Origin: a virus
Direction: 5' to 3' (one strand)
Virus record (IMG/VR): IMGVR_UViG_3300035698_014070
Location: 1-64,000 of that record
Length of the DNA stretch: 64,000 nucleotides
Part shown: positions 1 through 61,765 of the stretch, piece by piece
Numbering within the stretch: position 1 is the stretch's first letter
Layout: each line of letters starts with the position of its first letter
Notes under the pieces: model-generated
The model's database searches: none
Seen by the model: the letters and a program-made list of their open reading frames with translations, nothing else
What the model was told of the DNA's origin: nothing
Made by a program: the position numbers and the translations under genes

Positions 1-192
1 CGTAGTAGAGATGATGATACTGAAGAAGAAACTGGTTGTAGAAGTAGACGTAGTAGAGATGATGATACTGAAGAAGAAACTGGTCGTAGAAGTAGACGTA
101 GTAGAGATGATGATACTGAAGAAGAAACTGGTCGTAGAAGTAGACGTAGTAGAGATGATGATACTGAAGAAGAAACACCACGTAGAGGTAGA
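1..192 (+). repeat. 48-bp tandem repeat inside the first gene
   Basis: A 48-bp unit starts at 1, 49, 97 and 145. The first three copies are almost identical (a TGT/CGT codon difference in copy 1) and the fourth diverges in its second half. The unit is a multiple of three, so copy-number change keeps the frame. It encodes 16 residues, basic-acidic-basic. Confidence 0.9.
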
Positions 193-438
193 CGTCGTGA
201 AGAAGAAGATGATATGTCTAGTAGAGGTAGACGTGGTAAAGATGATGATACTGAAGATGATACGTCTAGTAAGCGTAATGACGAAGGTGAAGAAAGTGGT
301 GATGAAGATAGTTTACAAAATCGTTTAGCACGTAAAATGGAAGCAAATAAAGAAGATAATAAAGATAAAGACGTTGAGAAAGATGCCGATAAAGAAGAAA
401 CACCTCGTAGAGGTAGACGTGGTAGAAATGATAATTGA
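1..438 (+). CDS. C-terminal part of a low-complexity Arg/Ser/Asp/Glu-rich protein (5' end outside window)
   Basis: The frame is open from the first base and ends at TGA 436-438, giving 145 residues of a protein whose start lies to the left. The visible part is almost wholly charged: 16-residue repeats of the type RSRDDDTEEETGRRSR, then mixed acidic and RGRRG-type stretches, then a lysine/aspartate-rich tail ending in PRRGRRGRNDN. No folded domain is visible. Acidic disordered C-tails are typical of phage single-stranded DNA-binding proteins and would suit the recombination genes downstream, but here basic and acidic blocks alternate and the N-terminal domain is unseen, so no function is assigned. 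Confidence 0.7.
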   Translation, partial: RSRDDDTEEETGCRSRRSRDDDTEEETGRRSRRSRDDDTEEETGRRSRRSRDDDTEEETPRRGRRREEEDDMSSRGRRGKDDDTEDDTSSKRNDEGEESGDEDSLQNRLARKMEANKEDNKDKDVEKDADKEETPRRGRRGRNDN

Positions 439-18055: not shown

Positions 18056-18424
18056 ATGAATGATAGTTTTGATTGGCCTAGTAGTAAGACATATGCAGAT
18101 TTCTGTACAAGATTAAAAGAATTTAATGATACAGATTCGTATATTAGCGGAGAACTTAATGTATGGCTTGGTGATGTTGATATGACTTTAAAGGTACATG
18201 ATGGAGCGCATACTGTTTCTTTCTATTCAGAATTAGGTGCTCGTGAAGTATCAGAAACGAAAGCATCTGTAAAGAAAGATAAGATAAAAGATATGCTTGA
18301 ACAAATGAAAGAAGGAATTAATATACTTATAGACAACATTGATGAAGCAGTTGAAGAAGTAGTTAAACAGAATGCAGCATATAATGAGTGGGATAAAGAG
18401 TATACAGAAGAAAGTAAATTGTAA
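18056..18424 (+). CDS. Hypothetical acidic protein next to portal
   Basis: This 122-residue protein has strands in its first half (SGELNVWLGDVDMTLKVHDGAHTV) and a long helix in the second (KDMLEQMKEGINILIDNID). It follows AGGAGAAC and overlaps the portal start by one base. It has no SLRDI end. Function unknown. Confidence 0.55.
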   Translation: MNDSFDWPSSKTYADFCTRLKEFNDTDSYISGELNVWLGDVDMTLKVHDGAHTVSFYSELGAREVSETKASVKKDKIKDMLEQMKEGINILIDNIDEAVEEVVKQNAAYNEWDKEYTEESKL

Positions 18425-36092: not shown

Positions 36093-37694
36093 ATGACTCA
36101 GTTACGCGAAGACATTATAGAAAATTATCAGTTACTTGAAACTGATACAACTAAGCTGCCTGATGGTGTGTTATGTCGAGTGCAATATCCAATATGCAAT
36201 ATTGGTATATTGAATCGCAATAACCGGGTGTATGAGAAGGAATTGTGGGATGGTGTGTTAGCTAATAAAGAAGTAGCGCAAAAGCTAGAGAAGCGTTCTC
36301 TTTATGGTCAGGCTGAACATCCCAAAGAAACACAGAGTAATCTTGAAAAGACTTCTCATGTCATACATAGTATGAATGTAAACGAAGATGGATCTAAAAT
36401 TTCTCAGACTATGGATGTTTTGGATACACCATATGGACGGATTATAGACACACTCTTACGTGCAGGTTGTGGTGTTGGCGTATCTACACGAGCAGAAGGT
36501 GAATTAGAAGAATGCACTGATGAAAGTAATGGAAGTAAATATTTTCGCGTAAAACCTGAGTCATATGATTATGTTACAACCGATTTTACGGCTGATCCTA
36601 GTACTATTGATCCATATCCTGAGTCTGTGCAGCGCGATGTTGTTAGAGAAATAGCAAAAGACTTACATGATAATAGTATAGATAGAGCTTTTGCAATGCC
36701 TTTACTTGAATCAATGCAAGTAGATGAAGCAAAAGAATTGTTGAAAGAAAATAAAGAAAAACCTTTGTTTGAAGACTTTGACAGTGCTTTTGATTGGTTT
36801 AAAGATTATTTTAATACCATGGAAGAAGGAAAAGATAAAGATAAAATTCGTGAAATAATTACTGAAAGCAACTTTGATCCTAATGAAATAATTCCAGCAC
36901 AAGCATCAACATCTATTGAAGATACAGAAAAAGAAATAGAAGAAGTAGAAGATGAAGTTGAGAAAGATATTAAAGATGGTGAAACTCAGAAAGATACGAC
37001 TGAAGAAACTGTTGATGATGCTGAAGAATCTATAAATCCATTACTAGCTGTGAAAGATGCACTTATTAAAGAAGCATCTACTCGTGCTGAATTAGAAAAA
37101 GCAATAGAGATTATTGAAGAACATCAGTGCGATGAAAATAATGTAGCTATTGCAGTTTGTAAGATTAAAAATCTACAACAGAAATTAAAAGAACATAGTA
37201 AATCATATGATGCAAGAACGAAAGCATTACAAACTGCGCTAACTTGTAATGATAAGAAAACAGTTAAAAAAGTAAACGCTTTAAAGATTTCTTTAAAAGA
37301 ATATTTTAATAAATATAAAACACTTGATGAAGTTACAAAAAAGAAATTAGATAAATTAGAACAATGTAATAAAAAAATTGTAACAGAACATAAAGATCGT
37401 GTTATAATGATACAAGAAGAATGTGATAAGAAGATTGTTTCTAGTTACATCACTATGAAATTAGAGCAATCTGGTTTAAAACTGGCAGATAAATCTCGAG
37501 CACTTCTTGAAGATTGTAAAACTGTTGGTGAAGCGGAAACTATGTTGTCTGACTTACGATATACTATGCGTGAAAATGCCCTTCATCATCATTCAGGTGT
37601 ATCTGAAGAAGCGATTATTATTGAATCGACAACTAGTAAATTAGAAGATGAAATCGTAAAGAATGTTAGGTCTTCTTTGGCCGGCATGTCTTGA
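36093..37694 (+). CDS. Prohead protease fused to scaffold-like C-terminus (T4 gp21-like)
   Basis: This 533-residue protein follows AGGAGATATA. Its first ~190 residues match phage prohead proteases of the herpes assemblin-like fold: GILNRNNRVYEKELW near 37-51, SLYGQAEHPK near 68-77 (catalytic His) and GVGVSTRAEGELEE near 127-140 (catalytic Ser). The remainder is long coiled coil and acidic (EDTEKEIEEVEDEVEKDI), as in protease-scaffold fusions. It would cleave the core and capsid N-termini on maturation and be removed itself. The N-terminal MTQLREDIIENYQLLE could be its own targeting helix. Confidence 0.82.
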   Translation: MTQLREDIIENYQLLETDTTKLPDGVLCRVQYPICNIGILNRNNRVYEKELWDGVLANKEVAQKLEKRSLYGQAEHPKETQSNLEKTSHVIHSMNVNEDGSKISQTMDVLDTPYGRIIDTLLRAGCGVGVSTRAEGELEECTDESNGSKYFRVKPESYDYVTTDFTADPSTIDPYPESVQRDVVREIAKDLHDNSIDRAFAMPLLESMQVDEAKELLKENKEKPLFEDFDSAFDWFKDYFNTMEEGKDKDKIREIITESNFDPNEIIPAQASTSIEDTEKEIEEVEDEVEKDIKDGETQKDTTEETVDDAEESINPLLAVKDALIKEASTRAELEKAIEIIEEHQCDENNVAIAVCKIKNLQQKLKEHSKSYDARTKALQTALTCNDKKTVKKVNALKISLKEYFNKYKTLDEVTKKKLDKLEQCNKKIVTEHKDRVIMIQEECDKKIVSSYITMKLEQSGLKLADKSRALLEDCKTVGEAETMLSDLRYTMRENALHHHSGVSEEAIIIESTTSKLEDEIVKNVRSSLAGMS

Positions 37695-37712
37695 TATTAA
37701 GAGGTGATTATT

Positions 37713-38638
37713 ATGGGTATGGACTTACGCGCTGCTATGAAAGGGCGTCTTGAAGAAGAAACGATGAAGCGTAATCGCTTAATTGAACGATGGAGTTCAA
37801 TGATTACGGCTGTTGATAAATATTTACAAGAGGATCAAAACAGATCTTTAACTTTTTATGACAAACAGAATATTGCACAGTGCTTAGAAAACGCTTTGCT
37901 TGAGAATGGTCTTAAAGCTGGTAATAGAATGTTTGAAGCAACTAATATGGACAATGTTGAATTCATGGCAATTCAACTTCCTGTTATTGCTGCATTGCTG
38001 CCTTCTTTATGTCTTAATAAAGTCTCGACGGTACAGGCTTTGGATAGACGTCAAGGAGCTGTATTTTTCTTAGATTTGCAATATGGTACTGCTAAGGGAA
38101 ATATTGCTGTTGGTGATACGATGATATCTGCAACTACTGGTCATAACGCCACTGCTGCAAATCTTCGTTATGCTGTAACTACAGCTGACAGTGAAAGTCT
38201 TTCTGGTGCTGCTTTAACTTCTAGTGTATTGGCTGGTACGTTAACTTATCAACCAATGTTGGGTACAGTTAGTATTGTAGTTACCGATGGCTCTACGTAT
38301 ACAGATAATGTTAATCCTGGTCAAATTGAGGATTCTAGCGGAAATGTTCTTGGCTGGGTAAAAGTTTCTGGAGCATATGAAATTGATTTTACTGGTGAGT
38401 CTGTGATTCCTGATTCTGGTGGTGAAGTTGCCGCTACGTATTGTTATCAGTATGATCAAGCTGGTGGAGATGATACTCCCACAGTTAATGAAGTCAATAT
38501 TGATCTTCGCAGTGAAATGATTACCGCACAAGATTTCCCGCTGAAAGCTATTTATTCTATGGGCGCATCAATAGATTTACAAAAAGCCCATGGTCTGGTT
38601 TTAGAGGACGAGCTTGTTAAGTTCCTTGGTGGCGAGAT
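37713..38638 (+). CDS. Major capsid protein, exon 1 (T4 gp23-like)
   Basis: The start is ATG 37713 (GAGG at 37701-37704). The exon encodes 308 full codons plus AT. Segments VSTVQALDRRQGAVFFLDLQYGTAKGN and IYSMGASIDLQKAHGL...ELVKFLGGEI match the T4 gp23 capsid fold (spine helix and adjacent strands). Unspliced, the frame runs on for 12 codons to TAG 38675. P1 pairing (exon bases 38632-38639 with 38646-38653) and capsid continuity place the 5' splice site after U38638. Joined to exon 2 the product is 493 residues, close to T4 gp23. Confidence 0.85.
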
Positions 38639-39746
38639 TGATTTTGGTCTCGCGTCGTTAGCAATAGCGGCATAGTTAAAACTACTCAATTGCTGGGACA
38701 CCCTAACAAGTAGTGTTGAGGGCAATCAGCAGCTGCTAGTATGAAAAGTAAAATGATTAGTGAAAATATAAAATATTGTGAATGTGGTTGTGGAACGCCG
38801 ATTAAGCCAGCAAATAGATTTGTTAGTGGTCATAATCGACGTGGAACTAAAAATACTCCTGAGCATAATTTAGCGATAAGTCAGTATAATAAACTCCATA
38901 ATCCAGCTACAAATAAAGAAACAGCAGTAAAGATTTCAAAAGCATTGACTGGAAAAAAACAATCATTAGAAACTAGATTAAAAAGATCTAAGTCTTTAAC
39001 AAATAATCCTAAAGTTATTGCTTCTAGAATAGGTAATCAAAATAGAAAAGGAACAACTACAAGTAGCAAAGCTCGTAAGAATATGAGTAATAGTGCTAAA
39101 AATAAAGCTTTTTCTGATTCACACAAAGAAGCAATAAGTAATGGATTGATTAAGTATTTTTCAGTTATAGAGAATAGAATAAAAAGAGTAAAAGAAATTA
39201 GTAATAGAATTCAACTTAAAGGTTATCAGTATAAAAATGGATACTTAAAAATGTCTAATTTTAACCGCAAGTTGTTTTACCGTTCTTCTTATGAAAAGCT
39301 AGCTCTTATTATTCTTGATACTAAGTATAATGAAATAAAAGATATTTTCACAGAATGTATTCATATTCCATATAAAAACGCAGATGGTTCAACGCGTGTT
39401 TACACTCCTGATATTTTTGTTAAAATGAATAAAGGGAAAGATATACTTATTGAAGTAAAACCAAATTGCTTTGTTAATAATTCTGATGTTGTTAGAAAAA
39501 CAGAAGCAGGAATTTTTTGGGCAAAGCAAAACAACGTTACGTTTTGTATATGGACTGAAGATATTCTTCATAATAGTAGTTCAACGACTACGTGTTTACA
39601 AGAGATTGTAAATGCTACGGTAGTCTACCCACGTGGTAGAAGGTATAGTCTGAACTCAATGGAAACATTGAGAAGGGAGCAGAAATGACTCTCTCGCTTA
39701 TTAATATTTTAGCGACTTTGTTAATAAGTTTACAAGTAACAGATTG
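38639..39746 (+). mobile_element. Group I intron in the major capsid gene
   Basis: The 1108-nt intron shows P1 (38632-38639 with 38646-38653), P near 38686-38702, Q GGCAATCAGCAGCT at 38721-38734, R GTTCAACGACTACG at 39579-39592 and S AAGGTATAGTCTGA near 39640-39653, with P7 as GACTA/TAGTC. P8 is TCTACC/GGTAGA near 39624-39640. P9 is CTCAATG-GAAA-CATTGAG at 39655-39672. A further stem is CTTATTAA/TTAATAAG (39697-39704 with 39721-39728). The final base is G39746. P10 pairs exon-2 CAAG with TTTG at 38643-38646. The ORF lies between Q and R, i.e. in P6, as in T4 td. Confidence 0.88.
38741..39688 (+). CDS. Intron-encoded homing endonuclease (NUMOD-like, PD-(D/E)XK-like C-terminus)
   Basis: This 315-residue protein begins with a Cys/His module CECGCGTPIKPANRFVSGHN found in intron-associated endonucleases, followed by repeated NUMOD3-like DNA-binding motifs (AISQYNKLHNPATN; KISKALTGKKQSLE; NMSNSAKNKAFSDSHKEAIS). 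The C-terminal part has YRSSYEKLALIILD, then YTPDIFVKMNKGKDILIEVKP, an E...PD...EVK arrangement of PD-(D/E)XK nucleases. It would cut intronless capsid alleles and spread the intron. The coding frame runs through R, S and P9 to 39688, so the last ~37 residues are encoded by the ribozyme core. Confidence 0.8.
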   Translation: MKSKMISENIKYCECGCGTPIKPANRFVSGHNRRGTKNTPEHNLAISQYNKLHNPATNKETAVKISKALTGKKQSLETRLKRSKSLTNNPKVIASRIGNQNRKGTTTSSKARKNMSNSAKNKAFSDSHKEAISNGLIKYFSVIENRIKRVKEISNRIQLKGYQYKNGYLKMSNFNRKLFYRSSYEKLALIILDTKYNEIKDIFTECIHIPYKNADGSTRVYTPDIFVKMNKGKDILIEVKPNCFVNNSDVVRKTEAGIFWAKQNNVTFCIWTEDILHNSSSTTTCLQEIVNATVVYPRGRRYSLNSMETLRREQK

Positions 39747-40302
39747 CAAGTTTGAAATTGATCGCTATGGGCTTACTGCTATTGCAGCTGCTGCGACTGG
39801 TTCGAGTGCTGCGACAGCGATTGGTACTTGGACTGGTACTCCTACTACTGGTGAGTCTTGGGTATTCAAGAAATACGAGTGGTTGGATAAATTGGAAGTA
39901 GGTAATAACAATATTATCAGCAAAACAAAGAGAGCTAATGCTAACTTTATTATCTGCGGTAATAATGTTGCTCGTCTGATTCGTCAGATGGAAGGGCATT
40001 TTGTTCCTGCTTCTGGTCTTGATAAGAATATTCCTACTGGTCCATTTGAGTTAGGTACATTGAATGGTCGTATGGTTATACAAGATCCGTTTATGACGAC
40101 AGATCGTTATATCATGGGATTCCGCGGTGATAACTATCTGTTTGCTGGCGCTATATACGCTCCGTATATTCCGCTGTTTGCAACGCCTACAGTTATTCTT
40201 GGAAATCTGCAAGCACAAAAGGGCTTTATGAGTTCTGCTGGTTTCAAGGTAATTAATGCGGGTATGTATACGTATGGTGATATCGATTTGTCCGGTATTT
40301 AA
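39747..40302 (+). CDS. Major capsid protein, exon 2
   Basis: Exon 2 starts at C39747, completing the split codon AT-C (Ile), and reads KFEIDRYGLTAIAAAATG onward to TAA 40302. The junction then reads GGEIKFEIDRYG, which matches the spacing of the EVMLEINR segment of T4 gp23. Later parts (ANANFIICGNNVARLI, GTLNGRMVIQDPF, YIMGFRGDNYLFAGAIYAPYIPLF, GFMSSAGFKVINAGMYTYGDI) are the C-terminal half of the gp23 fold. The open frame upstream from ATG 39685 is intron sequence and should not be read as a protein start. Confidence 0.85.
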
Positions 40303-45374: not shown

Positions 45375-46907
45375 ATGGGTAATCAAATAAATCCAGCTGA
45401 TTTAATTTCGTACTTAAATGAAAATATTTCTTTTGAATCTAAGAAGCGGGTTAGTGAAACGCGTGGAGAAGGTAGAGGAGTAGGTGGTCCTACACAGCGT
45501 GATGGTGGTACGACTGTTTGTGTATGTCCACAATGTGGTAGTGAATGGAATCATCAGAAAGGTACTCCATGTTCACAGCAGCTTTGTCCTACTTGTAATG
45601 TTAAACTTCAAGGAAAAGCTTTTCATGAAATAAGCGCACCTATTAATAAAAAGTCTGTTGAATCTAAAACAGAAGAAAGCGCTGAAAAAAAGAAAGAAGA
45701 AGCAATTACACTTTCTTTTAACAAGAAAGCAAAAGGAACTGGTTTTACTTTAGAAAAATTAAAAAAAGGTTCGGGATATGAAATAAAGTATGATATTAAT
45801 TCAGATAATTTTAATAAGAAAACAAAAGAAAGTGCTGAAAAAGAAGAAAAATCTGATACACAAAGTATAGGCATATCTTCCAGTGAATCTGTTTGGCAGT
45901 GTAATGAATGTGGAGAGGTACTTGAGTATAGTTATTTAATTGATCCAAAGATTATGATATGTACTGAATGTAACAGTAAATCGCTTACATTAGTATATCC
46001 ATTACGCGAGCAGAGAGGTGAGAGTGGTCTTCCAGATAAAGAGTATTTCTTTTTGCTTGGAATGATTGATGATAAGATTGATGAGATTACTCGTACAATG
46101 TACGATGATTATAAATTTGATAACGCTATTTCACCAGATGCGGTTGTAGAATGGATTATGGATAATAAGTTAGAGGATATTGAAATACTTCGTAAAGAAG
46201 ATAGATTAGCTGATGCAGCAGAATTTGTAATAGATGCCATGGTTGGCGTAGGAGCGGCCTTGCCAAAAGGAAGTATAGAACCTAAAGAAGAGGAAGAAGC
46301 ACCAGCTGAGGGTGACCAGGATGATGAGTCAGAACCTGAAGAGCCAGTTGATGAAGAACCAGCACAAAATGATGAAGAAAAACCTGAAGAATCAGTAAAA
46401 GAAGCAGATACTGATAATATGAAAGTAATTGCTAGAGGTATTCCTAATAAAGATGCTGCTGAAGATATTGCAAAGAATCACGTTGGCGCAGTTGTATCTA
46501 CAGACGATAAAGATCCAAAGATGTTGATGGTGTTAATTAAAGAAGTTAATGAAAAAGAAATAAAAGAAAGTTCAGAAAGCACATATACATATAATGTTGA
46601 AGTAGAAGTATTTGGTGGACCAAATGGAGTAGAGCAAGTTAATCCATCAGTAAGTATAGATTACATGATTGAACAAGAATATCGTAGTTGGGGCATTAAA
46701 GAAATAGAAGTATCTATTATAACTAATCCTATTACATTTTGGATGAAAGATGGAGAAAGGGATATAAAAGTTCAAGTACCTTCTGAAAATATAGATATTG
46801 ATTGGATGCCAGGAACAGCGTATGTTCCTGATAATATAGAAGTGCATTTAAATGCTGATGGTAAATATGAAAATTGTACTTTAAATATGTACTACTTAAA
46901 GAAGTAA
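45375..46907 (+). CDS. Multi-domain zinc-ribbon protein, acidic
   Basis: I choose ATG 45375 (GAAGTGGTGG upstream), giving 510 residues; an earlier in-frame ATG would overlap two genes. Two zinc ribbons are clear: CVCPQCGSEWNH...CSQQLCPTCNVKL near 50-80 and CNECGEVLEYSY...ICTECNSKSL near 175-205. Acidic/proline stretches follow (EEEEAPAEGDQDDESEPEEP), then a C-terminal alpha/beta domain. The composition resembles other head-region proteins here. Function unknown. Confidence 0.5.
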   Translation: MGNQINPADLISYLNENISFESKKRVSETRGEGRGVGGPTQRDGGTTVCVCPQCGSEWNHQKGTPCSQQLCPTCNVKLQGKAFHEISAPINKKSVESKTEESAEKKKEEAITLSFNKKAKGTGFTLEKLKKGSGYEIKYDINSDNFNKKTKESAEKEEKSDTQSIGISSSESVWQCNECGEVLEYSYLIDPKIMICTECNSKSLTLVYPLREQRGESGLPDKEYFFLLGMIDDKIDEITRTMYDDYKFDNAISPDAVVEWIMDNKLEDIEILRKEDRLADAAEFVIDAMVGVGAALPKGSIEPKEEEEAPAEGDQDDESEPEEPVDEEPAQNDEEKPEESVKEADTDNMKVIARGIPNKDAAEDIAKNHVGAVVSTDDKDPKMLMVLIKEVNEKEIKESSESTYTYNVEVEVFGGPNGVEQVNPSVSIDYMIEQEYRSWGIKEIEVSIITNPITFWMKDGERDIKVQVPSENIDIDWMPGTAYVPDNIEVHLNADGKYENCTLNMYYLKK

Positions 46908-46916
46908 AGATATATT

Positions 46917-47846
46917 GTGGATTATGAATTATATAAAAAATTGTTTTACACAGTAAATGAGCAGACATCTGATTCTAATTATGAACCTTCTCGTGATTTT
47001 TTAGATGGAGTAGATAAAATATTTTTGTCTTTTTCAGAAGAAGAGTGCGAATGGATAGAACAAAACCGCTACTTTTTTTCTGCTAGTAAAATGATTGCTG
47101 GCAGTAAAAAAAATGAAGATGGAACATATGATTCTAATGTAGATTTAGATTTTAGCAATAAAAAATTTAAAGATGGGAAGTTACCGTTTAAATTAAATAA
47201 AGTAAATGGCAGTTTTAAAGTTTTTGATTGTGGATTAACAACATTAGAAGGTTGTCCTAAAATAGTTACTAAATTGTTTAGTTGTTTTAAAAATAATCTT
47301 ACATCATTAAAAGGAGGTCCTGAAGAAGTTGGAATGCACTATTCTTGCATGGCAAATAAACTTAAATCTTTAGAGTTTCTTCCTAAAAAACTTAGGAGTT
47401 TAGATTGTTCAATTAATAAATTACGTTCATTAGATAATTTTGTTCCTAATGAATTATCTTCTTTTAGTTGTTTTAAAAATAATCTTACATCATTAAAAGG
47501 TAGCCCAACAAAAATAATTAGTTATTTTGATTGCAGTAGCAATAAACTAACTTCATTAGAAGATGGACCTAGATACGTAGGTGGGGGTTATATTTGTGCA
47601 AGAAATAAATTAATATCTTTAAAAGGAGCTCCTAAATCTATTACTGTAAGTGAAGGGTTTAGTAATTTTAATTGTTCGCATAATGAGTTAACATCATTAG
47701 AATTTGCTCCACAATACGTATCTGGAACTTTTGATTGTAGTAAAAATAAACTAACTTCTTATGAATTTATACCTAAAAAAGTAAAAAAAGTTATTAGTAA
47801 AGGTAATCCAATAACATACGAACAATGGATAAAACAAAATGAGTAA
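46917..47846 (+). CDS. Leucine-rich-repeat protein
   Basis: This 309-residue protein probably starts at GTG 46917. From about residue 85 to 300 it has roughly nine LRR-like units of the type LTSLKGGPEEVGMHYSC, with Cys/Asn and Leu at fixed places (SCFKNNLTSLKG, DCSSNKLTSLEDG, NCSHNELTSLEFAP). Such repeats build a solenoid for protein binding and occur in large-phage genomes. A shorter relative is at 50737. Confidence 0.65.
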   Translation: MDYELYKKLFYTVNEQTSDSNYEPSRDFLDGVDKIFLSFSEEECEWIEQNRYFFSASKMIAGSKKNEDGTYDSNVDLDFSNKKFKDGKLPFKLNKVNGSFKVFDCGLTTLEGCPKIVTKLFSCFKNNLTSLKGGPEEVGMHYSCMANKLKSLEFLPKKLRSLDCSINKLRSLDNFVPNELSSFSCFKNNLTSLKGSPTKIISYFDCSSNKLTSLEDGPRYVGGGYICARNKLISLKGAPKSITVSEGFSNFNCSHNELTSLEFAPQYVSGTFDCSKNKLTSYEFIPKKVKKVISKGNPITYEQWIKQNE

Positions 47847-48216: not shown

Positions 48217-50667
48217 ATGTTTAATGAATTATACGAAAATTTAGCTTCTGTTTTAGAGAATAATGGGCATGAGTACTCTAATGTTCAGATAACAATAACA
48301 GGTGAACTTTCTAAAAAAATGCTTGATTATGGTAAAAGTATACCTGATGAAGAAATTTATACTGATGAGAATGATCCATCGTATGGTAGAGAAAAAGATA
48401 CACATGTTACTGTGCGGTATGGATTAACAACAGACAATCCATCTGAATTACAAAAAGCTTTTACAGATTTTGGCATAATAAAATTAAAAATGAATAATAT
48501 ATCTGTTTTTGAGACAGATGATTATGCTATAATTAAAATAGATATTGATAGCAATGATTTACATAAAGCGAATGAATTAGTTGGTGAAACAGAAGATGTA
48601 CCTGGTGAAACATATAAAGAGTACAAACCGCATGCTACAATTGCTTATGTAAAGAAAGGTGCTGGAAAGAAATACATTGATAATAAAACATTTAATGGTG
48701 AAGAAATAACTGTTAATACAATTGAATTGAATGATAGGAACGATACTAAACACACGATAAATTTATCTCGAGATATGTCTGCAGAATGTAAGTTGCAGAA
48801 GATCCATAAGGCGACTGTGAGTGAAAATGCAGACATTAACGAATTAGATTGGAAAAAGACAGCTAAGGTTGCGGCTGCTACAACAGCAGTAGGATTGGTT
48901 GGATTGCTAGGCCAGCAAAAAGCATATAGAAATTATGATAAAGGACTTATAGCGAACCAATCTGCTTCTGCTGTTACTAAATCTGCTGAGCAACCTGAAG
49001 TTCAGCAGAAACTGGCAAAGGAAACTAACGTAAATGAAATAGATATAGATAAGATTGCACAAATAGAGTCATCTAATAATCCTACCGCTGTTAATAAAAG
49101 AACAGGTACACGCGGGTTATGCCAGTTTATGGAGCCAACTTGGAATGATGTTATTAAAAAGATGAAAGTTGATTGGACATGGGAAGATGCTTTTGATCCT
49201 AATAAAAACAGAACAGCAGCTGAGTTTTATATAAACAAAGACATACCACGTATGTTACAATATTATAAGATAGAGGATACAAATGAAACAAGACTTGCGT
49301 CTTATAACTGGGGTATTGGTAATGTGAAAAAAGCAGTTCGTAAGTATGGAAAAGATTGGATTAATCACATTCCTACAGAAACTCGTAATTATATTCAGAA
49401 GTATAATGCATTACAAGAAGTAATTCAGCATGATGGTGGAAACTTTCAGCACTTTTTTGTTGATGCAAAAGGTTACGCAATACAAGTAGCAAGTCATGTA
49501 GAGTATGTAAAGAAAAAACTTGGTACTAATTATGCTGATGAAAAAGCAGTTAATAAGTATATGAAAAAGAATAAACTGATACGTTTAGGGCAGACTGAAG
49601 ATGTTTTGTTTTTCGTATCAGTTGCCAGTAAAGTAACAGATGTTCAAATAAAAGTATTAAGAAAGCTTCTTCGTTCTGGTACAACATTGTATTACGATAT
49701 ATTTAAAGGAACTAAACGTATTAATTCTGGTTCAGGATTTAAAGAGTTTTTAGAAGATCTTGAATATTATAAAATGTATAAGCCTAAAACAAACGAATCT
49801 ACTATTGATTTTCCTAGAGAAGATTTACCTACGGAGATATGGACAAAAGAGAATGGTGAATATGTTTTAAGAGATGATGTGTATAATAAGATCGTGAAAA
49901 CACTGGCACAATATCCTAACGTTGATTTAAATAAATTAGCTACAACGATGCACATAACTGGTTCAATCGGGACTAATCAGCATGATGATGATTGTGATTT
50001 GGATGTACATATATTACCATTAGAAGGTAAAGCAGATAATCATTTACAAAAAGATGTATTTAAGTGGTTTAATGAAAACAGAGACAAAATTGATGGATAC
50101 GTTGGTGAACATCCTATTGAAGTATATATTCAGTTAGATCCACAGCAAGAATTGTTTGCAGATGCGGCGTATGATGTTGGTAATAAGAGATGGTTAAAGG
50201 GTCCTAAGAAAGCTGCTTCGTCTTATAATCCGTATGAAGAGTTTAAAGAATTGTTAGTAGATGTAGTAAGTGATGCAGAAGAAGCTGATAAGGTATTGGG
50301 TGAACTTAAGCGAGATACAATAGATTATACAACTATTGTTCGCGCGATGCGCTACCTAAGTACAGGTGATAAAGAACACTTACACGATATGCTATTATCA
50401 AAGTCGGTTGAGATTGATGCAGATATACGTGCGTTGATTAAACAAAAAGGAGAGTGGACAAACGCTCGCCATATGTCATCGCAAGCCACACCCGAAGATG
50501 CCTTAAAAGATGTAGACATTGCTAAAAGATGGAAAGATGAAAATGCAAAATTTAAATTTATGAATCGCTACAATTACGTCAAGCTTATAAAAGATCTTGA
50601 AGATATGATTAAAGATGAAGAGCTTTCTGATAGAGAAATAAATCTTATACAAAGAACTTTAACATGA
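48217..50667 (+). CDS. Three-domain protein: 2H phosphoesterase, lytic transglycosylase, nucleotidyltransferase-like
   Basis: This 816-residue protein has three enzyme-like parts. Residues 1-185 carry two HxT(V/I) motifs, HVTV (63-66) and HATI (139-142), as in 2H phosphoesterases. Residues 215-232 are hydrophobic. Residues 278-400 are a lysozyme-like transglycosylase (IAQIESSNNPTAVN with Glu284, GTRGLCQFMEPTWNDV, RLASYNWGIGNVKKAV). Residues about 575-650 have GSIGTNQHDDDCDLDVHI and HPIEVYIQL, a Pol beta-like nucleotidyltransferase pattern (GS...DxD). It begins MFNELYENLASVLE, like other head-block proteins. A virion-carried, injected multi-enzyme is plausible; all three activities are inferred. 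Confidence 0.7.
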   Translation: MFNELYENLASVLENNGHEYSNVQITITGELSKKMLDYGKSIPDEEIYTDENDPSYGREKDTHVTVRYGLTTDNPSELQKAFTDFGIIKLKMNNISVFETDDYAIIKIDIDSNDLHKANELVGETEDVPGETYKEYKPHATIAYVKKGAGKKYIDNKTFNGEEITVNTIELNDRNDTKHTINLSRDMSAECKLQKIHKATVSENADINELDWKKTAKVAAATTAVGLVGLLGQQKAYRNYDKGLIANQSASAVTKSAEQPEVQQKLAKETNVNEIDIDKIAQIESSNNPTAVNKRTGTRGLCQFMEPTWNDVIKKMKVDWTWEDAFDPNKNRTAAEFYINKDIPRMLQYYKIEDTNETRLASYNWGIGNVKKAVRKYGKDWINHIPTETRNYIQKYNALQEVIQHDGGNFQHFFVDAKGYAIQVASHVEYVKKKLGTNYADEKAVNKYMKKNKLIRLGQTEDVLFFVSVASKVTDVQIKVLRKLLRSGTTLYYDIFKGTKRINSGSGFKEFLEDLEYYKMYKPKTNESTIDFPREDLPTEIWTKENGEYVLRDDVYNKIVKTLAQYPNVDLNKLATTMHITGSIGTNQHDDDCDLDVHILPLEGKADNHLQKDVFKWFNENRDKIDGYVGEHPIEVYIQLDPQQELFADAAYDVGNKRWLKGPKKAASSYNPYEEFKELLVDVVSDAEEADKVLGELKRDTIDYTTIVRAMRYLSTGDKEHLHDMLLSKSVEIDADIRALIKQKGEWTNARHMSSQATPEDALKDVDIAKRWKDENAKFKFMNRYNYVKLIKDLEDMIKDEELSDREINLIQRTLT

Positions 50668-50744
50668 AAAAATTAATTGAACAACTTGAAAAATGTGTTA
50701 CTGAAATAAATCCTATAAGTGAAAAGGTGAAAATTTATGGATAA
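50664..50744 (+). CDS. 26-residue peptide made of a CTS-like helix
   Basis: ATG 50664 overlaps the previous stop by ATGA and the frame ends at TAA 50744, overlapping the next start. The peptide begins MKKLIEQLEKCVTE and ends ISEKVKIYG. It is essentially only the N-terminal helix found on the SLRDI proteins. It may be a translated remnant, a coupling peptide or a small functional peptide. Confidence 0.4.
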   Translation: MKKLIEQLEKCVTEINPISEKVKIYG

Positions 50745-51387
50745 GTTAGTTGAATATCTTATTAAAGAAGTAGAGAAGCAAGCTTCAGATGAAGAGTTTT
50801 TAGATAAAGTTGTTGATGGAACATACACATTAAACTCTGATGGCAGTTATGATGTAGTTGGTAATGTAAAAGTGTTTAAAACGCAATCAACTTTTATTTT
50901 TGTAAAATTTAGAAAAGTAAGTGGAAATTTTATTTGTAGTTATAATGACTTAACAACATTAGAAGGCGCACCTAAAGAAGTAGGTGGAAATTTTACTTGT
51001 AACAACAATATCTTAACAACATTAGAAGGCGCACCTAAAGAAGTAGGTGGAAATTTTACTTGTAGTTATAATGACTTAACAACATTAGAAGGCGCACCTA
51101 AAGAAGTAGGTGGAAATTTTACTTGTAGTTATAATGACTTAACAACATTAGAAGGCGCACCTAAAGAAGTAGGTGGAAATTTTACTTGTAAAAACAATTA
51201 CTTAACAACATTAGAAGGCGCACCTAAAGAAGTAGGTGGAAATTTTACTTGTAAAAACAATGACTTAACAACATTAGAAGGATTAAATTATGTTAAAGGT
51301 AAAATTATTTATAATAATAATCCTATGAATTGTGAAGAAGAAATAAAAAAGCACAAACAAAGAAAAGCATCACTTAGAGATATATAA
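50737..51387 (+). CDS. SLRDI-tag leucine-rich-repeat protein
   Basis: This 216-residue protein begins MDKLVEYLIKEVEKQ (CTS-like) and ends KASLRDI. Its middle is about five LRR units of 21 residues (LTTLEGAPKEVGGNFTCSYN), almost identical to each other, unlike the diverged repeats at 46917. The repeat array suggests recent tandem duplication. It shows that the N- and C-terminal peptides are attached to quite different cores. Confidence 0.65.
   Translation: MDKLVEYLIKEVEKQASDEEFLDKVVDGTYTLNSDGSYDVVGNVKVFKTQSTFIFVKFRKVSGNFICSYNDLTTLEGAPKEVGGNFTCNNNILTTLEGAPKEVGGNFTCSYNDLTTLEGAPKEVGGNFTCSYNDLTTLEGAPKEVGGNFTCKNNYLTTLEGAPKEVGGNFTCKNNDLTTLEGLNYVKGKIIYNNNPMNCEEEIKKHKQRKASLRDI
50930..51290 (+). repeat. 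63-bp tandem repeat array encoding LRR units
   Basis: A 63-bp unit (CTTAACAACATTAGAAGGCG, then CACCTAAAGAAGTAGGTGGAAATTTTACTTGT plus a variable 11-base segment) occurs about five times with very few differences outside the variable part (AGTTATAATGA, AACAACAATAT, AAAAACAATTA). It is in frame. The variable part falls on exposed residues of the repeat. Confidence 0.85.
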
Positions 51388-51859: not shown

Positions 51860-52062
51860 TGCAGAAAGTAACAAACTTAACGAATGAAAGTATACATTTA
51901 TATATTTCAGGAATGGTTAAGCTAATTCTTGGTCCACATGAGAGTATAACTGTGGATATTAGTGGTATAATGAATTTGCCTGAAATACGCTCTAAGATTT
52001 TGATTGGTGAAAACTTGACAGAAGTAAATCCAGTAAGTGGAAAGATGCCTTTGTATGGATAA
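51859..52062 (+). CDS. Small hypothetical beta protein
   Basis: This 67-residue protein overlaps the previous stop (TAATG). VTNLTNESIHLYISGMVKLILGPHESITVDI is a single strand-rich unit like small virion proteins in sheath-proximal clusters. The next gene starts inside its last codons. Confidence 0.5.
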   Translation: MQKVTNLTNESIHLYISGMVKLILGPHESITVDISGIMNLPEIRSKILIGENLTEVNPVSGKMPLYG

Positions 52063-52495
52063 GTTAATTAAACAATTAATCGATGAAATGGCAAAATCCA
52101 GTAAAAAAACATTAGCTCAAATGGATTTAAAAGAAATTCCAGAGATAAGTAAAGTGAAACATTTAAATCAATTAGCTGTGTGGGCAGCTAGACTTGGTTA
52201 TCCAGAGCTTATTCATCTTGCATTAGATAATGGAGCTAAGTTAGAACAAAAAGATATTGAACAATTAGCTATGCACGCGCTAAGATATAAATCTATTCCT
52301 ATGGCTGAAATAGCAGCAGATTTAGGTTGGGACAAAGATATGGATATTGCTGATGATAGAGCTGGATTAGATTCTGAAAATATTGATTGGCAAATAAAAA
52401 AGTGTAAAAATAATAAAACATCAAATATTGATTTTTACATATGGTTACGTGATAAATTTAATATAGTACCACTTGGTAGTTTAAGAGATATTTAA
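52055..52495 (+). CDS. SLRDI-tag ankyrin-like protein
   Basis: From ATG 52055 the product has 146 residues. It begins MDKLIKQLIDEMAKSSKK and ends GSLRDI. The middle (LNQLAVWAARLGYPELIHLALDNGAKLEQ, then IEQLAMHALRYKSIPMAEIAADLG) has the helix-turn-helix rhythm of ankyrin repeats. It overlaps both neighbours. Again a tag pair around a protein-binding core. Confidence 0.6.
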   Translation: MDKLIKQLIDEMAKSSKKTLAQMDLKEIPEISKVKHLNQLAVWAARLGYPELIHLALDNGAKLEQKDIEQLAMHALRYKSIPMAEIAADLGWDKDMDIADDRAGLDSENIDWQIKKCKNNKTSNIDFYIWLRDKFNIVPLGSLRDI

Positions 52496-53203: not shown

Positions 53204-54865
53204 ATGGGCTTTTATATGTCACCCGGTGTTTATAGTAAAGAGAAAGATATTTCTAATATCATTCCTACCATTTCGTCTACTACAGCTGCTTTAGTTGGAT
53301 GTTCTGTAAAGGGTAGTTTAGATGTTACGAGTGTTACTAATTCTCAGCAGTTTATAGAAGAGTATGGTAAACCTGTACCAGGAAATTATTTCCACTATAC
53401 TGCATTAGCATTTTTAGAAAACGGAAATAGTTTATACTGTAAACGGGTAATTAATGCAGCACTATACGGTGGAATGGATGTGTATGAAGCAGATGCTGGA
53501 ACAAATATAGCATTTACTTCTGGTGAAACAACTGCTGAGTTTACCTATGCATCTTCAGAAGATGAAGTAATATTGCAAATATTTGGTAAAGATCCAGGTG
53601 TGTGGGATAATCGTATTAGTATTAATATTGGAAATGTTCAAGAAACTATAGATACTACATATAAAGATAGTGATGAAGAAGATATCGCACTTCCAACTGT
53701 TGAACAGTATACATTTAGTATTGAAGTATGGTATGAGAACGATGAAGGAACAGATGAATTAGTTGAATCATGGAAAGTTAGTCGTAAAACAAAAACAGAT
53801 GGTAATGGACGACAGCTATATCTTGAAGATGTAATAAATGGTTATAGTAAATATATTCTTGTATATGATAATACAGATATTGCTGATACAAGTTTACCTG
53901 AAAGTAATGGTACATTAGGTGTTGTAACAGACGCAGTTACTTTAGGTGGTGGAAGTGATGGTGGTACAGTTACAGCGGCTGCTAAAGTTTTAGGATGGAC
54001 AGAATTTGAAAATCCAGATGATGTAGATATTCGAATTATGTTAAACGGCGGTGAAACAGATGTATCTGTTCAAACTGAAATGAAGCGCGTTGCAGAAGCT
54101 CGTAAAGATTGTTTTGCTATTTTAGATATACCGTATGCACAACTTTCTAGTATTACGAATATGCTTACATGGAGAATGAGTACGCAAAATTTTGATTCTA
54201 GTTACACAGCTTTATATGCACCGTGGGTAAAAGCTTATGATGCGTATAATGATGTGCTTCTCGAATTGCCGCCTTCTGGATATGTTGGTTCGCAGTATGT
54301 TTATAATGATTTTAATGCTGAAGTGTGGTACGCCCCTGCTGGTCATACTCGAGGTAAATTAAATGTATTAAGTTTGACAGATGTATTTACACAAGGTGAG
54401 CGTGATCAATTATATCCAAGACAAATTAATCCACTACAAACATTCCGTGGTCGTGGTAATGTTATATGGGGACAAAAAACACAGCAGTTTAAAGCATCCG
54501 CACTTAGTAGTGTCAATGTTCGTAGGCTTTTGATTATAATAGAAAAAGCAGTAGCTATTGCAATGCAGGACTTTGTGTTTGAACCAAATAATGATTTGAC
54601 GCGTTTTAAAGTTGAAGCAGTTATTACTGAATATATGGATAATCTTTCAGCAAAAGGAGCGTTTCAAACTGAAGCTGGTGATGATGGATATGCAGTAATA
54701 TGTAATACGACAAACAATACGCCTGCGATTATTGATTTAAATGAACTACATGTAGATATATTTGTAAAGCCTTCACGCGCCGCAGAGTATATTCAGTTAC
54801 AAACTATTATCACACCGACTGGAGCATCATTTAATGAGTTAATAAGTCGTGGAGTTTTGTTATAA
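53204..54865 (+). CDS. Tail sheath protein
   Basis: This 553-residue contractile sheath protein follows AAGGAG. It starts MGFYMSPGVYSKEKDISNIIP, the usual sheath N-terminus, followed by a variable beta insert (residues 90-240). The conserved C-terminal domain includes WGQKTQQFKASALSSVNVRRLLIIIEKAV and TPAIIDLNELHVDIFVKPSRAAEYIQL. Sheath subunits polymerise around the tube and contract during infection, which makes this a myovirus. Confidence 0.92.
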   Translation: MGFYMSPGVYSKEKDISNIIPTISSTTAALVGCSVKGSLDVTSVTNSQQFIEEYGKPVPGNYFHYTALAFLENGNSLYCKRVINAALYGGMDVYEADAGTNIAFTSGETTAEFTYASSEDEVILQIFGKDPGVWDNRISINIGNVQETIDTTYKDSDEEDIALPTVEQYTFSIEVWYENDEGTDELVESWKVSRKTKTDGNGRQLYLEDVINGYSKYILVYDNTDIADTSLPESNGTLGVVTDAVTLGGGSDGGTVTAAAKVLGWTEFENPDDVDIRIMLNGGETDVSVQTEMKRVAEARKDCFAILDIPYAQLSSITNMLTWRMSTQNFDSSYTALYAPWVKAYDAYNDVLLELPPSGYVGSQYVYNDFNAEVWYAPAGHTRGKLNVLSLTDVFTQGERDQLYPRQINPLQTFRGRGNVIWGQKTQQFKASALSSVNVRRLLIIIEKAVAIAMQDFVFEPNNDLTRFKVEAVITEYMDNLSAKGAFQTEAGDDGYAVICNTTNNTPAIIDLNELHVDIFVKPSRAAEYIQLQTIITPTGASFNELISRGVLL

Positions 54866-59828: not shown

Positions 59829-61160
59829 ATGGTTGATATTGCAGGGACATACCATTTACGATTAACATTTAACAATGGAAAGCTTGTTGTGGAGCTTAAT
59901 CCACAAGCGATTCATATATTTGAAATAACACAGGAAATTAATAATTTACTTCCTACGGTTATACTAGAAGTAGAAGAACCAAACGGTGAAATTGGAATGC
60001 TTTTGCCATTTGATAATAAGCTTGCAAATATGCAAGTAGAATTTTGTGGTGCTAAAAATATAAATGATTCAGAAGAGTACAATCAGTTTAACTTTGTTAT
60101 TACTAAAAAAATAACAATAAGTGATGGTAGACTTCGTTTAGAAGGAGAATTAAGTATACATGGATTATTTTCTCCAAAGCATAGTCGTGGTTTTCCAATA
60201 TCAGGAACTACAGATATTACAATAAAAAAGTATATAGAAAAAATTGCAACAACCGAAATATCTATATTTAGCAATACTGAAGATCGAAGTAATAAGTATA
60301 TTAATGCAGAAGTAAGTTCGTATTTAGAATATGAAAAAACTTTAATACAACCACGATGGACTAATGCACAATTTTTAAAATATTTACGTGACAATATTAT
60401 TGGTACAGTAGATGAAGCTGGATTTTTTTGTTTTGTTTGTGTAAAGAATAGAAAAACAACACTCGTTTTTAAATCTGCACGAGATTTTTATGATGAGCCA
60501 ATTAGTCAACGTTTTGTTGTATATGATGAAATTCGTAAAGGAAGTTTTCCTGTTTATAAATTTTTATCATACGATTATTTTAATGGCGGTAATAAAGAAC
60601 TTAAAAGTAAACAAGAATATTCTTATTACAACTATAATGATACAGAATACGTAGATGCATATGTAGATTATACAACATATCATTCTTTATCTAAACATAT
60701 ACTGATTGATAAAAATGAAGATACAAATTCAAACGATATCGATAATCTTGGACGATCAAATGATTTTACATCAGATTTTCTTGGAAAGATAAAAGGTGCT
60801 TATACTAAAAAGTTGTTAGGATTATCTCGTTTTTGGATAACGACAGATGGTTTACAAAATATTACTCCAGGTAAGCTTGTTTATATTCATTTTCCTGCAA
60901 AAGTGATGCAAGAAGAAGCGATCGTAATTACATATAGCGGATATTGGATGATTGAAAAAGTTGTACACGCATTTAGAGATGTTTATTTGACACGTTTATT
61001 ATTAACACGACCTGGAATTGATACTGCGATGGATACAGAATTATTAGTTGCTCCAGTATTTAAAGTAGATCAATCTAAAGAAGTACTGAAAACGCAAAAA
61101 GCGCAAAATAAATCGCAAAAGCGAATATCTACATCATCTGATATGGACATAATAACATAA
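59829..61160 (+). CDS. Baseplate hub protein (gp27/late-control-D-like)
   Basis: This 443-residue protein has the layout of hub proteins that join the tube to the spike: N-terminal barrel (residues 1-130), a middle domain with TTISDI/EYEKTLIQPRWTNAQFLKYLRDNIIGTVDEAGFFCF, and a C-terminal barrel with GLQNITPGKLVYIHFPAKVM. It is immediately followed by the gp5-like spike gene. The C-terminus is basic. Confidence 0.75.
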   Translation: MVDIAGTYHLRLTFNNGKLVVELNPQAIHIFEITQEINNLLPTVILEVEEPNGEIGMLLPFDNKLANMQVEFCGAKNINDSEEYNQFNFVITKKITISDGRLRLEGELSIHGLFSPKHSRGFPISGTTDITIKKYIEKIATTEISIFSNTEDRSNKYINAEVSSYLEYEKTLIQPRWTNAQFLKYLRDNIIGTVDEAGFFCFVCVKNRKTTLVFKSARDFYDEPISQRFVVYDEIRKGSFPVYKFLSYDYFNGGNKELKSKQEYSYYNYNDTEYVDAYVDYTTYHSLSKHILIDKNEDTNSNDIDNLGRSNDFTSDFLGKIKGAYTKKLLGLSRFWITTDGLQNITPGKLVYIHFPAKVMQEEAIVITYSGYWMIEKVVHAFRDVYLTRLLLTRPGIDTAMDTELLVAPVFKVDQSKEVLKTQKAQNKSQKRISTSSDMDIIT

Positions 61161-61765
61161 TGGATAGTGTTGAAAAAATTTATGGTAACTATCGTGGAAA
61201 AGTACTTGGTACAGATAGTAGTGAATCGTCAAAATCTGGTCGTATTAAGGTAGAAGTATATCCATTTTTTGAAAGCATTGATAAAGATTTTATTCCATGG
61301 GCAGTTCCTGCTATGCCCCTGTTTGATGGTGCAGGAAGCGGATACGGTTGTTTAAGTATACCTACTGTTGGATCATACGTGTGGGTATTTTTTGAAGCGG
61401 GAGATATTTACCAGCCCGTTTATTTTGCAGAAGCGCAAACTCCTGATGTTGGAATACCATCAGAAGCATCTACAAATTACCCTAAAAGAAAAGTGTTAAA
61501 AACAAGCGGCGGTGTTACAATATATATTGATGATACTAGTGATTCTATTGTTATAGAAAATGATGAAGGTAATAAAATACAAATAGATGATGAAATTTTA
61601 TTAACTCATTCTAGTGGCGCAAAAATAGTAATAGATAGCTCTGGTAATATAGAAGTTAATGGAACCAGCTTATTATTGACTAATGCTATAGGATCTGGTT
61701 ATATTGATATAGACGCGGCTGGTGCAATGATTATAGAGGGCGTCACTGTCAACGTAAATCCATAA
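61160..61765 (+). CDS. Baseplate spike protein (gp5/VgrG-like, OB fold plus beta-helix)
   Basis: This 201-residue protein starts in the hub stop (TAATG). Residues 10-90 form an OB domain (YRGKVLGTDSSESSKSGRIKVEV; GSYVWVFFEAGDIYQPVYFAEA, the hallmark of gp5/VgrG proteins). Residues 110-200 are regular short repeats (VTIYIDDTSDSIVIENDEGNKIQID; GNIEVNGTSLLL) of an intertwined beta-helix. There is no lysozyme domain as in T4 gp5; cell-wall cleavage may come from another protein such as that at 48217. Confidence 0.85.
   Translation: MDSVEKIYGNYRGKVLGTDSSESSKSGRIKVEVYPFFESIDKDFIPWAVPAMPLFDGAGSGYGCLSIPTVGSYVWVFFEAGDIYQPVYFAEAQTPDVGIPSEASTNYPKRKVLKTSGGVTIYIDDTSDSIVIENDEGNKIQIDDEILLTHSSGAKIVIDSSGNIEVNGTSLLLTNAIGSGYIDIDAAGAMIIEGVTVNVNP

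What the first reader, a model, noticed from the sequence alone, without database searches (positions are those of the whole stretch)
48217..50667. One protein joining a 2H phosphoesterase, a lytic transglycosylase and a nucleotidyltransferase-like domain
Two HxT motifs, a lysozyme-like module with Glu284 and a GS...DxD module lie in one 816-residue protein with a hydrophobic stretch between. The transglycosylase could open peptidoglycan during entry, in keeping with the lysozyme-free gp5-like spike. 2H phosphoesterases include the anti-CBASS enzyme Acb1, and the last domain resembles nucleotide-second-messenger or RNA-modifying enzymes. An injected enzyme that opens the wall and disarms nucleotide signalling is an attractive but unproven reading.
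Basis: inference. Interest (0 to 1): 0.75.

Follow-up and report, generated by a model that had tools for sequence, protein, structure and literature searches.

The report
Fused head-packaged phage enzyme cargo
This phage gene joins three enzymes that related phages keep as separate, individually tagged genes next to the tail-sheath gene; the tags look like signals that load proteins into the virus head, so it is probably a package of early-infection enzymes injected with the DNA, although no activity has been tested.

Summary
Observation confirmed: one intact 816-aa ORF carries a 2H phosphoesterase (HxT63-65, HxT139-141), a hydrophobic stretch, an SLT transglycosylase (E284), an unnamed accessory domain and a Pol-beta-type nucleotidyltransferase (GS582, DxD594-596, E635). 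The 2H model matches known 2H enzymes, Acb1 among them; catalytic residues are conserved in homologues.

The new part is how the protein is built. In related phages the same slot, between head genes and tail sheath, holds these modules as separate genes: 2H alone, or SLT followed by NTase. Each starts with a short tag ending in hydrophobic-x-Glu, the cleavage motif of T4-type prohead proteases; this phage encodes such a protease. Similar tags start about half of its head/cargo genes, without excess in early or tail genes. The fused protein keeps a tag at its N-terminus and recognisable sites at both internal junctions (VLE14|N, INE209|L, TNE527|S).

Best reading: a "polyvalent protein" (Iyer et al. 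2017), packaged in the head, possibly cut by the prohead protease, ejected with DNA. Injection fits the evidence but is unproven. Anti-nucleotide signalling is possible, not established: two Acb1 base-contact residues have no counterpart in the alignment. New variant of a known kind.

The parts
48217..48258 (+). N-terminal tag, residues 1-14 (MFNELYENLASVLE|N): predicted capsid-targeting helix with prohead-protease-type site
   Evidence: helix 2-14 then low-confidence linker in the model; same kind of tag on standalone 2H relatives L029 MRELLEQTLKIFE|N and L031; statistics
48262..48771 (+). 2H phosphoesterase domain, residues 16-185; HxT at 48403-48411 and 48631-48639
48775..48843 (+). Internal remnant of the SLT gene's tag, residues 187-209, ending INE|LDWKK; Met187 has no clear ribosome-binding site upstream
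   Evidence: aligned with N-termini of standalone SLT genes L176, L177, L195, L189, L172; DNA
48844..48915 (+). Ala/Gly-rich hydrophobic stretch of the SLT module, about residues 210-233
   Evidence: conserved in standalone SLT and 3D-domain relatives
49006..49416 (+). SLT lytic transglycosylase domain, residues 264-400, catalytic Glu284 at 49066-49068; standalone SLT genes end at this point
   Evidence: PF01464 E=8e-15; alignment
49426..49776 (+). Accessory domain (MID), about residues 404-520, no Pfam match; weakly similar to domains next to NTase or 2H in L070 (two copies), L093 and L220 (two copies)
49774..49797 (+). Junction before the NTase, residues 520-527, MYKPKTNE|STIDF; P1 Glu kept, P3 is Thr
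   Evidence: 36 of 40 homologues have Glu before S-x-[IV]D[FY], 33 of 40 [LIVMF]xE
49798..50664 (+). Pol-beta-type nucleotidyltransferase domain, residues 528-816 (GS582-583, D594, D596, E635) plus a long helical C-terminal part
36093..37694 (+). Prohead protease (Peptidase_S77, the T4 gp21 family) with a coiled-coil C-terminal part; candidate processing enzyme
   Evidence: PF03420 28.8 bits against cut-off 27; phrog_207 E=2.5e-27
18424..20184 (+). T4-type portal (gp20)
   Evidence: PF07230 E=8e-25
37704..40302 (+). Major head protein in two pieces (37704-38675, 39685-40302) around an inserted endonuclease-like ORF 38741-39688
   Evidence: both pieces match phrog_138
45375..46907 (+). Tagged neighbour (internal Met of ORF 45159, MGNQINPADLISYLNE|N), zinc-ribbon protein
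46917..47846 (+). Tagged neighbour MDYELYKKLFYTVNE|Q, LRR-like repeats
50737..51387 (+). Tagged neighbour MDKLVEYLIKE|V, LRR-like repeats
52055..52495 (+). Tagged neighbour (internal Met of ORF 52037) MDKLIKQLIDE|M
53204..54865 (+). Tail sheath, right-hand anchor of the conserved cargo slot
   Evidence: PF04984 E=3e-14; synteny
61160..61765 (+). Spike/hub OB-fold protein without a lysozyme domain
   Evidence: PF04717 only

Best explanation
The gene encodes a polyvalent cargo protein made by fusion of adjacent, individually tagged head-cargo genes (2H; SLT; accessory+NTase). Its first 14 residues probably act like a T4 capsid-targeting sequence that draws it into the prohead core. The phage's gp21-type protease would then cut after VLE14 and possibly at the retained junction sites INE209|L and TNE527|S, giving 2H (22 kDa), SLT+accessory (37 kDa) and NTase (34 kDa) products. 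The cargo would be ejected with the DNA: the SLT, with its hydrophobic stretch, loosening peptidoglycan or aiding passage in a phage whose spike has no lysozyme; the 2H enzyme hydrolysing cyclic-phosphate or phosphodiester bonds of a nucleotide or RNA in the host; the NTase transferring an NMP to a host protein or RNA. Shown here: domains, conserved catalytic residues, modular origin, synteny, tag enrichment. Inferred: packaging, cleavage, ejection and all substrates.
For: Separate tagged SLT and NTase genes lie next to each other in relatives, and standalone tagged 2H genes (L029, L031) lie in the same slot upstream of homologues of window 51389, 52495 and the sheath. Related fused forms show the fusion is not an artefact: L220 (SLT-MID-MID-NTase) and L222 (SLT-NTase keeping an internal MKKLLDVLE tag); L070 (NTase-MID-HAD-MID-2H) and L066 (SLT and 2H). 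The junction glutamate is conserved in 36/40 NTase homologues whatever precedes it. Head/cargo N-termini resemble each other (mean pair score 1.86 vs -0.08, sd 0.30, in shuffles) while early and tail genes do not stand out; [LIVF]xE ending at residues 9-18 in 19/39 vs 9/45, p=0.005. In L033 the 2H domain sits inside the prohead protease (55% identity to the window's protease). T4 gp21 cuts after L/I-x-E and 10-19-residue CTSs target cargo (PMC9026906); P1 DarB has a comparable N-terminal signal, and P1's gp5 spike lacks lysozyme (PMC9024508).
Against: No virion proteomics or activity data exist. The third junction (TNE|S) lacks the hydrophobic P3, so cleavage there is doubtful. The tag is short and degenerate: [LIVF]xE alone also occurs in 9/45 other genes. 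Structural genes (protease, head-completion genes) carry similar N-termini too, so the tag marks the head module rather than injected enzymes specifically. No relative with all three modules fused was found. Standalone 2H genes occur outside head regions in some phages (Magritte, Maribacter).
Confidence: 0.66

Rival explanations
1. Anti-CBASS (Acb1-like) cargo: the 2H domain degrades cyclic oligonucleotides at the start of infection.
For: Catalytic tetrad conserved; Acb1 structures among fold matches; closest solved sequences are phage BCSR5 proteins named Acb1, E=6e-8; 62/64 homologues touch the Pfam Acb1 model; profile match to T4 57B, E=2.5e-5.
Against: Below the Pfam Acb1 gathering score; the 2_5_RNA_ligase2 model fits as well or better; better fold matches are a poxvirus cGAMP PDE and Usb1; Acb1 residues E141 and W147 (PMC9117128) have no counterpart in alignment A10, although W74 aligns with conserved F98.
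Confidence: 0.25
2. RNA repair cargo: the 2H domain opens 2',3'-cyclic phosphates left by anticodon nucleases and the NTase restores RNA ends.
For: L066 joins 2H with HAD-like, ligase and primase domains, and L070 and L074 join 2H with HAD-like phosphatase sequences; TIGR02258 RNA 2',3'-CPDase is the best NCBIfam match to the 2H part, weakly.
Against: No ligase or kinase module in this protein or found among the window genes scanned; no match to RlaP or CCA-adding families at Pfam level; Iyer et al. report polyvalent 2H domains never associated with RNA ligases (PMC5512222).
Confidence: 0.2
3. Host-modifying or antitoxin-like NTase: the NTase AMPylates a host protein (MNT antitoxin-like, or T4 Alt-like take-over in spirit), and 2H and SLT are independent helpers.
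For: Weak structural matches to MNT antitoxins (8xeo, 6m6u, 7bxo, 8xeh); profile matches to DrrA, a protein AMPylase, at E=0.005 and to small putative NTases; Iyer et al. suggest NMP transfer to protein for polyvalent Pol-beta NTases.
Against: All these matches are weak (fold E of 0.07 or more); the substrate cannot be read from sequence.
Confidence: 0.3
4. Tail-associated lysin: a structural lytic protein of tail or baseplate (as with SLT domains in tape measures), whose other domains are passengers.
For: The gene is close to sheath and tube genes; SLT domains in tail proteins are common (PHROG matches).
Against: Its slot is shared by standalone 2H and NTase genes with head-type tags; the tag enrichment is confined to the head/cargo region and absent from tail genes.
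Confidence: 0.12
5. Uncleaved fusion: packaged and ejected whole, with the junction motifs being neutral remnants.
For: P3 is Thr at the third site; N4 vRNAP is packaged unprocessed and P1 DarB is a 250-kDa head protein (PMC5512222, PMC9024508).
Against: The junction Glu and flanking residues are kept in fused forms L220, L222, L093 and the window.
Confidence: 0.45

Closest known systems
Polyvalent proteins of phages and conjugative elements (Iyer et al. 2017, PMC5512222)
   Same: several unrelated enzymatic domains in one polypeptide, late-gene location; 2H, Pol-beta NTase and lysozyme-type domains are on the published list
   Different: no zincin peptidase found; apparently a different Pol-beta NTase subfamily; this work ties the fusion to separately tagged cargo genes with prohead-protease-type sites at the junctions
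T4 internal proteins IPI-III and Alt with capsid-targeting sequences (PMC9026906)
   Same: short N-terminal segment ending in hydrophobic-x-Glu, gp21-family protease encoded by the phage, several unrelated proteins sharing it
   Different: tag sequence differs from T4's; here a tag precedes a multi-enzyme fusion with further sites inside
P1 DarB and Dar proteins (PMC9024508)
   Same: very large head-packaged counter-defence protein with N-terminal targeting signal; gp5 spike without lysozyme
   Different: DarB is a methylase-helicase; no 2H, SLT or NTase
Acb1 (T4 57B, FBB1, BCSR5)
   Same: 2H fold and HxT/HxT tetrad; the BCSR5 protein is the closest solved sequence
   Different: below family score; two base-contact residues without counterpart in the alignment; Acb1 is a standalone short protein
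Tunturiibacter phage Tunturi_5 gp321
   Same: related 2H domain in a 1362-aa multi-enzyme protein between a head-tail connector and a minor tail gene
   Different: partners are ART-PolyVal, GNAT and SprT-like domains instead of SLT and NTase

Membership tests
Polyvalent protein | two or more biochemically unrelated domains in one polypeptide | tested here: met
   2H, SLT, accessory and NTase in one ORF
Polyvalent protein | same domains found in other combinations in other mobile elements | tested here: met
   L066, L070, L220, L222, L169, L033, Tunturi_5 gp321
Polyvalent protein | encoded near late virion genes of a phage with portal-type packaging | tested here: met
   T4-type portal, head protease, major head protein, sheath and tube in the window
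Polyvalent protein | delivered into the host with the DNA | not testable with these tools
   needs virion proteomics and ejection assay
T4-type capsid-targeting sequence | short N-terminal segment, 10-19 residues, ending at L/I-x-E | tested here: met
   VLE14, with Val instead of Leu/Ile at P3; helix 2-14
T4-type capsid-targeting sequence | shared by otherwise unrelated head proteins of the same phage | tested here: met
   N-termini of head/cargo genes mutually similar, 1.86 vs -0.08 (sd 0.30)
T4-type capsid-targeting sequence | gp21-family protease encoded by the phage | tested here: met
   Peptidase_S77 above cut-off
T4-type capsid-targeting sequence | sufficient to load a protein into the head | not testable with these tools
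   needs reporter fusion
Acb1 | 2H fold with HxT/HxT tetrad | tested here: met
Acb1 | reaches the Pfam Acb1 gathering score | tested here: not met
   21.7 bits against 27
Acb1 | base-contact residues Y12, W74, F107, E141, W147 | tested here: inconclusive
   W74 aligns with F98; E141 and W147 have no counterpart in A10, but the C-terminal alignment is uncertain (residues from PMC9117128)
Acb1 | cleaves cyclic oligonucleotides | not testable with these tools
   enzyme assay needed
SLT lytic transglycosylase (PF01464) | score above gathering and catalytic Glu in ESS motif | tested here: met
   54.9 bits against 21.3; the ESS Glu and Ser are invariant in A7
Pol-beta nucleotidyltransferase superfamily | GS...DxD plus third acidic residue, conserved | tested here: met
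   G582, D594, D596 invariant, E635 at least 90% in 42 sequences
Pol-beta nucleotidyltransferase superfamily | Pfam NTP_transf_2 match | tested here: inconclusive
   none for the window domain itself; 28/42 homologues at E<=0.01; divergent homologue L149 above gathering

The most novel reading that the evidence does not exclude
The protein is a natural capsid-cargo polyprotein: tagged single-enzyme cargo genes in a hypervariable slot of T4-type phages fuse while keeping their targeting and cleavage sites, so that the prohead protease releases three enzymes inside the head. The phage-specific N-terminal tag would then be a readable address label that predicts the injected proteome of uncultured phages.
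Probability: 0.4. Interest if true: 0.78.

Novelty: new variant of a known kind. Interest (0 to 1): 0.62.

Why it matters
It offers a concrete route by which polyvalent phage proteins arise (fusion of neighbouring tagged cargo genes), links that class to capsid targeting and maturation proteolysis, and suggests that head-packaged proteins of uncultured T4-type phages could be predicted from N-terminal tags. It also gives a defined 2H/SLT/NTase set to test for counter-defence.

Tried and rejected
A single-protein scan of viral contigs found nothing; alignments were needed. Whole-protein phmmer against the PDB gave nothing significant. A scan of bacterial and archaeal genomes with the close NTase/accessory alignment found no relative; the broader NTase alignment was not conserved enough to search. 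I first took L094 2814-3518 for an SLT gene, but it is a 3D-domain enzyme. An internal translation start at Met187 was considered and set aside for lack of a ribosome-binding site. An assembly artefact was rejected because L220 and L222 show related fusions. Deciding 2H specificity from fold rank alone was rejected because different 2H classes score alike. Literature searches found no paper combining polyvalent proteins with capsid-targeting sequences in the held library, which covers open-licence papers only.

Full report
WHAT IS THERE. The ORF at 48217-50667 is a single 816-residue frame with an ATG start. Pfam finds an SLT transglycosylase well above threshold and a 2H domain just below it; the C-terminal third matches nothing on its own. 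Alignments built from related loci settle the rest. In 64 2H sequences the HxT/HxT tetrad (H63, T65, H139, T141) is invariant. In 42 NTase sequences G582, D594, D596 and H598 are invariant and E635 nearly so, 28 of them match NTP_transf_2, and the divergent member L149 passes its gathering score. The 2H model (pLDDT 88.5) matches solved 2H enzymes: a poxvirus cGAMP PDE, Usb1, Acb1, CPDases and LigT. The NTase model (pLDDT 92) has weak matches to MNT antitoxins and ANT(4'') in the PDB and strong ones to predicted phage proteins, one of them named as a nucleotidyltransferase.

WHERE IT SITS. The record is a 74-kb viral contig. Upstream are a T4-type portal (18424), a gp21-family prohead protease (36093) and a major head protein interrupted by an endonuclease-like ORF; downstream come sheath, tube and baseplate genes. 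The spike protein 61160 has only an OB fold. No other peptidoglycan hydrolase was found among the genes scanned, including those in the last 10 kb of the record; not every ORF was scanned.

THE FUSION. Scans of IMG/VR with the 2H, NTase and SLT alignments brought in relatives. Those examined gene by gene have the module in the same slot, upstream of homologues of window 51389, 52495 and the sheath. L029 and L031 have the 2H domain alone (40-43% identity). L092-L096 and L172-L207 have the NTase as its own gene or behind a short unrelated domain (mostly 35-49% identity), and in L172, L176, L177, L189 and L195 the SLT is its own gene directly upstream, overlapping or abutting it. Other phages fuse subsets: L220 is SLT-accessory-accessory-NTase, L222 is SLT-NTase, L093 is accessory-NTase behind a separate SLT gene. 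More distant phages combine the same modules differently: L070 (NTase, accessory twice, HAD-like, 2H), L066 (HAD-like, ligase, primase, SLT, 2H), L169 (NTase with amidase and M23 peptidase), L094 (a 3D-domain enzyme in the SLT slot). Of 14 related records searched with the whole protein, none has all modules; these records may be fragments. The window protein is therefore a fusion of cargo genes that are usually separate.

THE TAG. Most of the separate genes begin with a short segment ending in hydrophobic-x-Glu: MRELLEQTLKIFE|N (2H), MRELLEKTLAVNE|LD (SLT), MYNRLFDKVVQE|SSIDF (NTase). T4 gp21 cuts after L/I-x-E, and 10-19-residue propeptides of T4 internal proteins act as capsid-targeting sequences (PMC9026906). 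The window protein keeps one at its N-terminus (VLE14|N; helix 2-14 in the model), a clear remnant before the SLT (INE209|LDWKK, aligned with the standalone SLT N-termini) and the conserved Glu before the NTase (TNE527|STIDF; 36 of 40 homologues keep that Glu, 33 with a hydrophobic residue at P3). In the window the N-termini of 39 head/cargo genes are mutually similar (mean pair score 1.86; shuffled -0.08, sd 0.30), whereas early genes (-0.50 against -0.76, sd 0.32) and tail genes (-1.35 against -1.61, sd 0.71) are not beyond shuffles; the simple motif occurs in 19/39 against 9/45, p=0.005. Five gene starts were moved to internal Met codons for that test, which favours the tag slightly; with uncorrected starts the motif count is 18/39 and p=0.0098. 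Other phage groups show the same thing with a different local tag: standalone 2H proteins begin MKTWQQFLQE|K, MKSYKTFLNE|N, MRFKQFYLEE|A. In L033, a phage sharing portal, protease and major head protein homologues with the window, the 2H domain lies inside the prohead protease polypeptide.

HOW IT PROBABLY WORKS. The evidence fits a head-packaged, ejected multi-enzyme cargo. Packaging, cleavage and ejection are inferences from motif, synteny and precedent (T4 internal proteins and Alt; P1 DarB, whose first 30 residues target the head, in a phage whose gp5 spike also lacks lysozyme, PMC9024508). The SLT most likely helps cargo or DNA across the wall. For the 2H domain, a nucleotide or RNA phosphodiester is the expected kind of substrate from the family, but its identity is open: the closest solved sequences are BCSR5 proteins named Acb1, yet the protein misses the Acb1 score and two of five base-contact positions have no counterpart in the alignment. 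The NTase has weak leads to protein-AMPylating and MNT-type enzymes.

COMPARISON. The class 'polyvalent proteins' was described in 2017 and already lists 2H, Pol-beta NTase and lysozyme domains and predicts injection and nucleotide counter-signalling (PMC5512222). The protein is a member by architecture and context. What that paper does not describe, in the sections I read, is construction from separately tagged cargo genes with prohead-protease-type sites retained at the junctions. I rate it a new variant of a known kind.

Noticed in passing
window 37704-40302: Major head protein gene split in two (both halves match phrog_138) around a homing-endonuclease-like ORF 38741-39688; relatives L031 and L033 have it in one piece of 486-491 aa.
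   Followed up: partly
L033:5344-8046: 900-aa prohead protease of a related phage with a 2H domain and a zinc-ribbon-like stretch between the protease and the coiled-coil part; the zinc-ribbon stretch resembles window gene 45375-46907.
   Followed up: partly
L060:3805-5724 and 10346-10690; L003 and L009 neighbours: Series of unrelated genes sharing another local N-terminal tag (MAKFKQFIAE, KFKRFILE, MGKFKQFLME; MKYLKKF-type in huge phages), as if each phage had its own address label.
   Followed up: partly
L070:3568-7413: 1281-aa protein with NTase, two copies of the accessory domain, a HAD-like phosphatase and a 2H domain.
   Followed up: yes
L066:1429-8031: 2201-aa protein joining HAD-like, DNA/RNA ligase, LigD-type primase, SLT, HEAT-like and 2H domains.
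   Followed up: partly
L169:22-2709: NTase of the same family fused to Amidase_2, Peptidase_M23 and a peptidoglycan-binding domain.
   Followed up: no
L012-L028 and others: 2H relatives inside giant proteins of about 2,600-3,700 residues, several with an N-terminal SLT domain (e.g. L089); also 2H domains in portal-like proteins (L036, L050, L056, L079), the latter judged by eye.
   Followed up: partly
window 46917-47846 and 50737-51387: Two tagged proteins with similar LRR-like repeats flank the cargo gene; L093 has several tagged genes of this kind, one starting MLNELYNKIKEQDRFSDVF.
   Followed up: no
window 11-328: Short ORF made of a tandem repeat (VVEVDVVEMMILKKKL) at the contig start.
   Followed up: no
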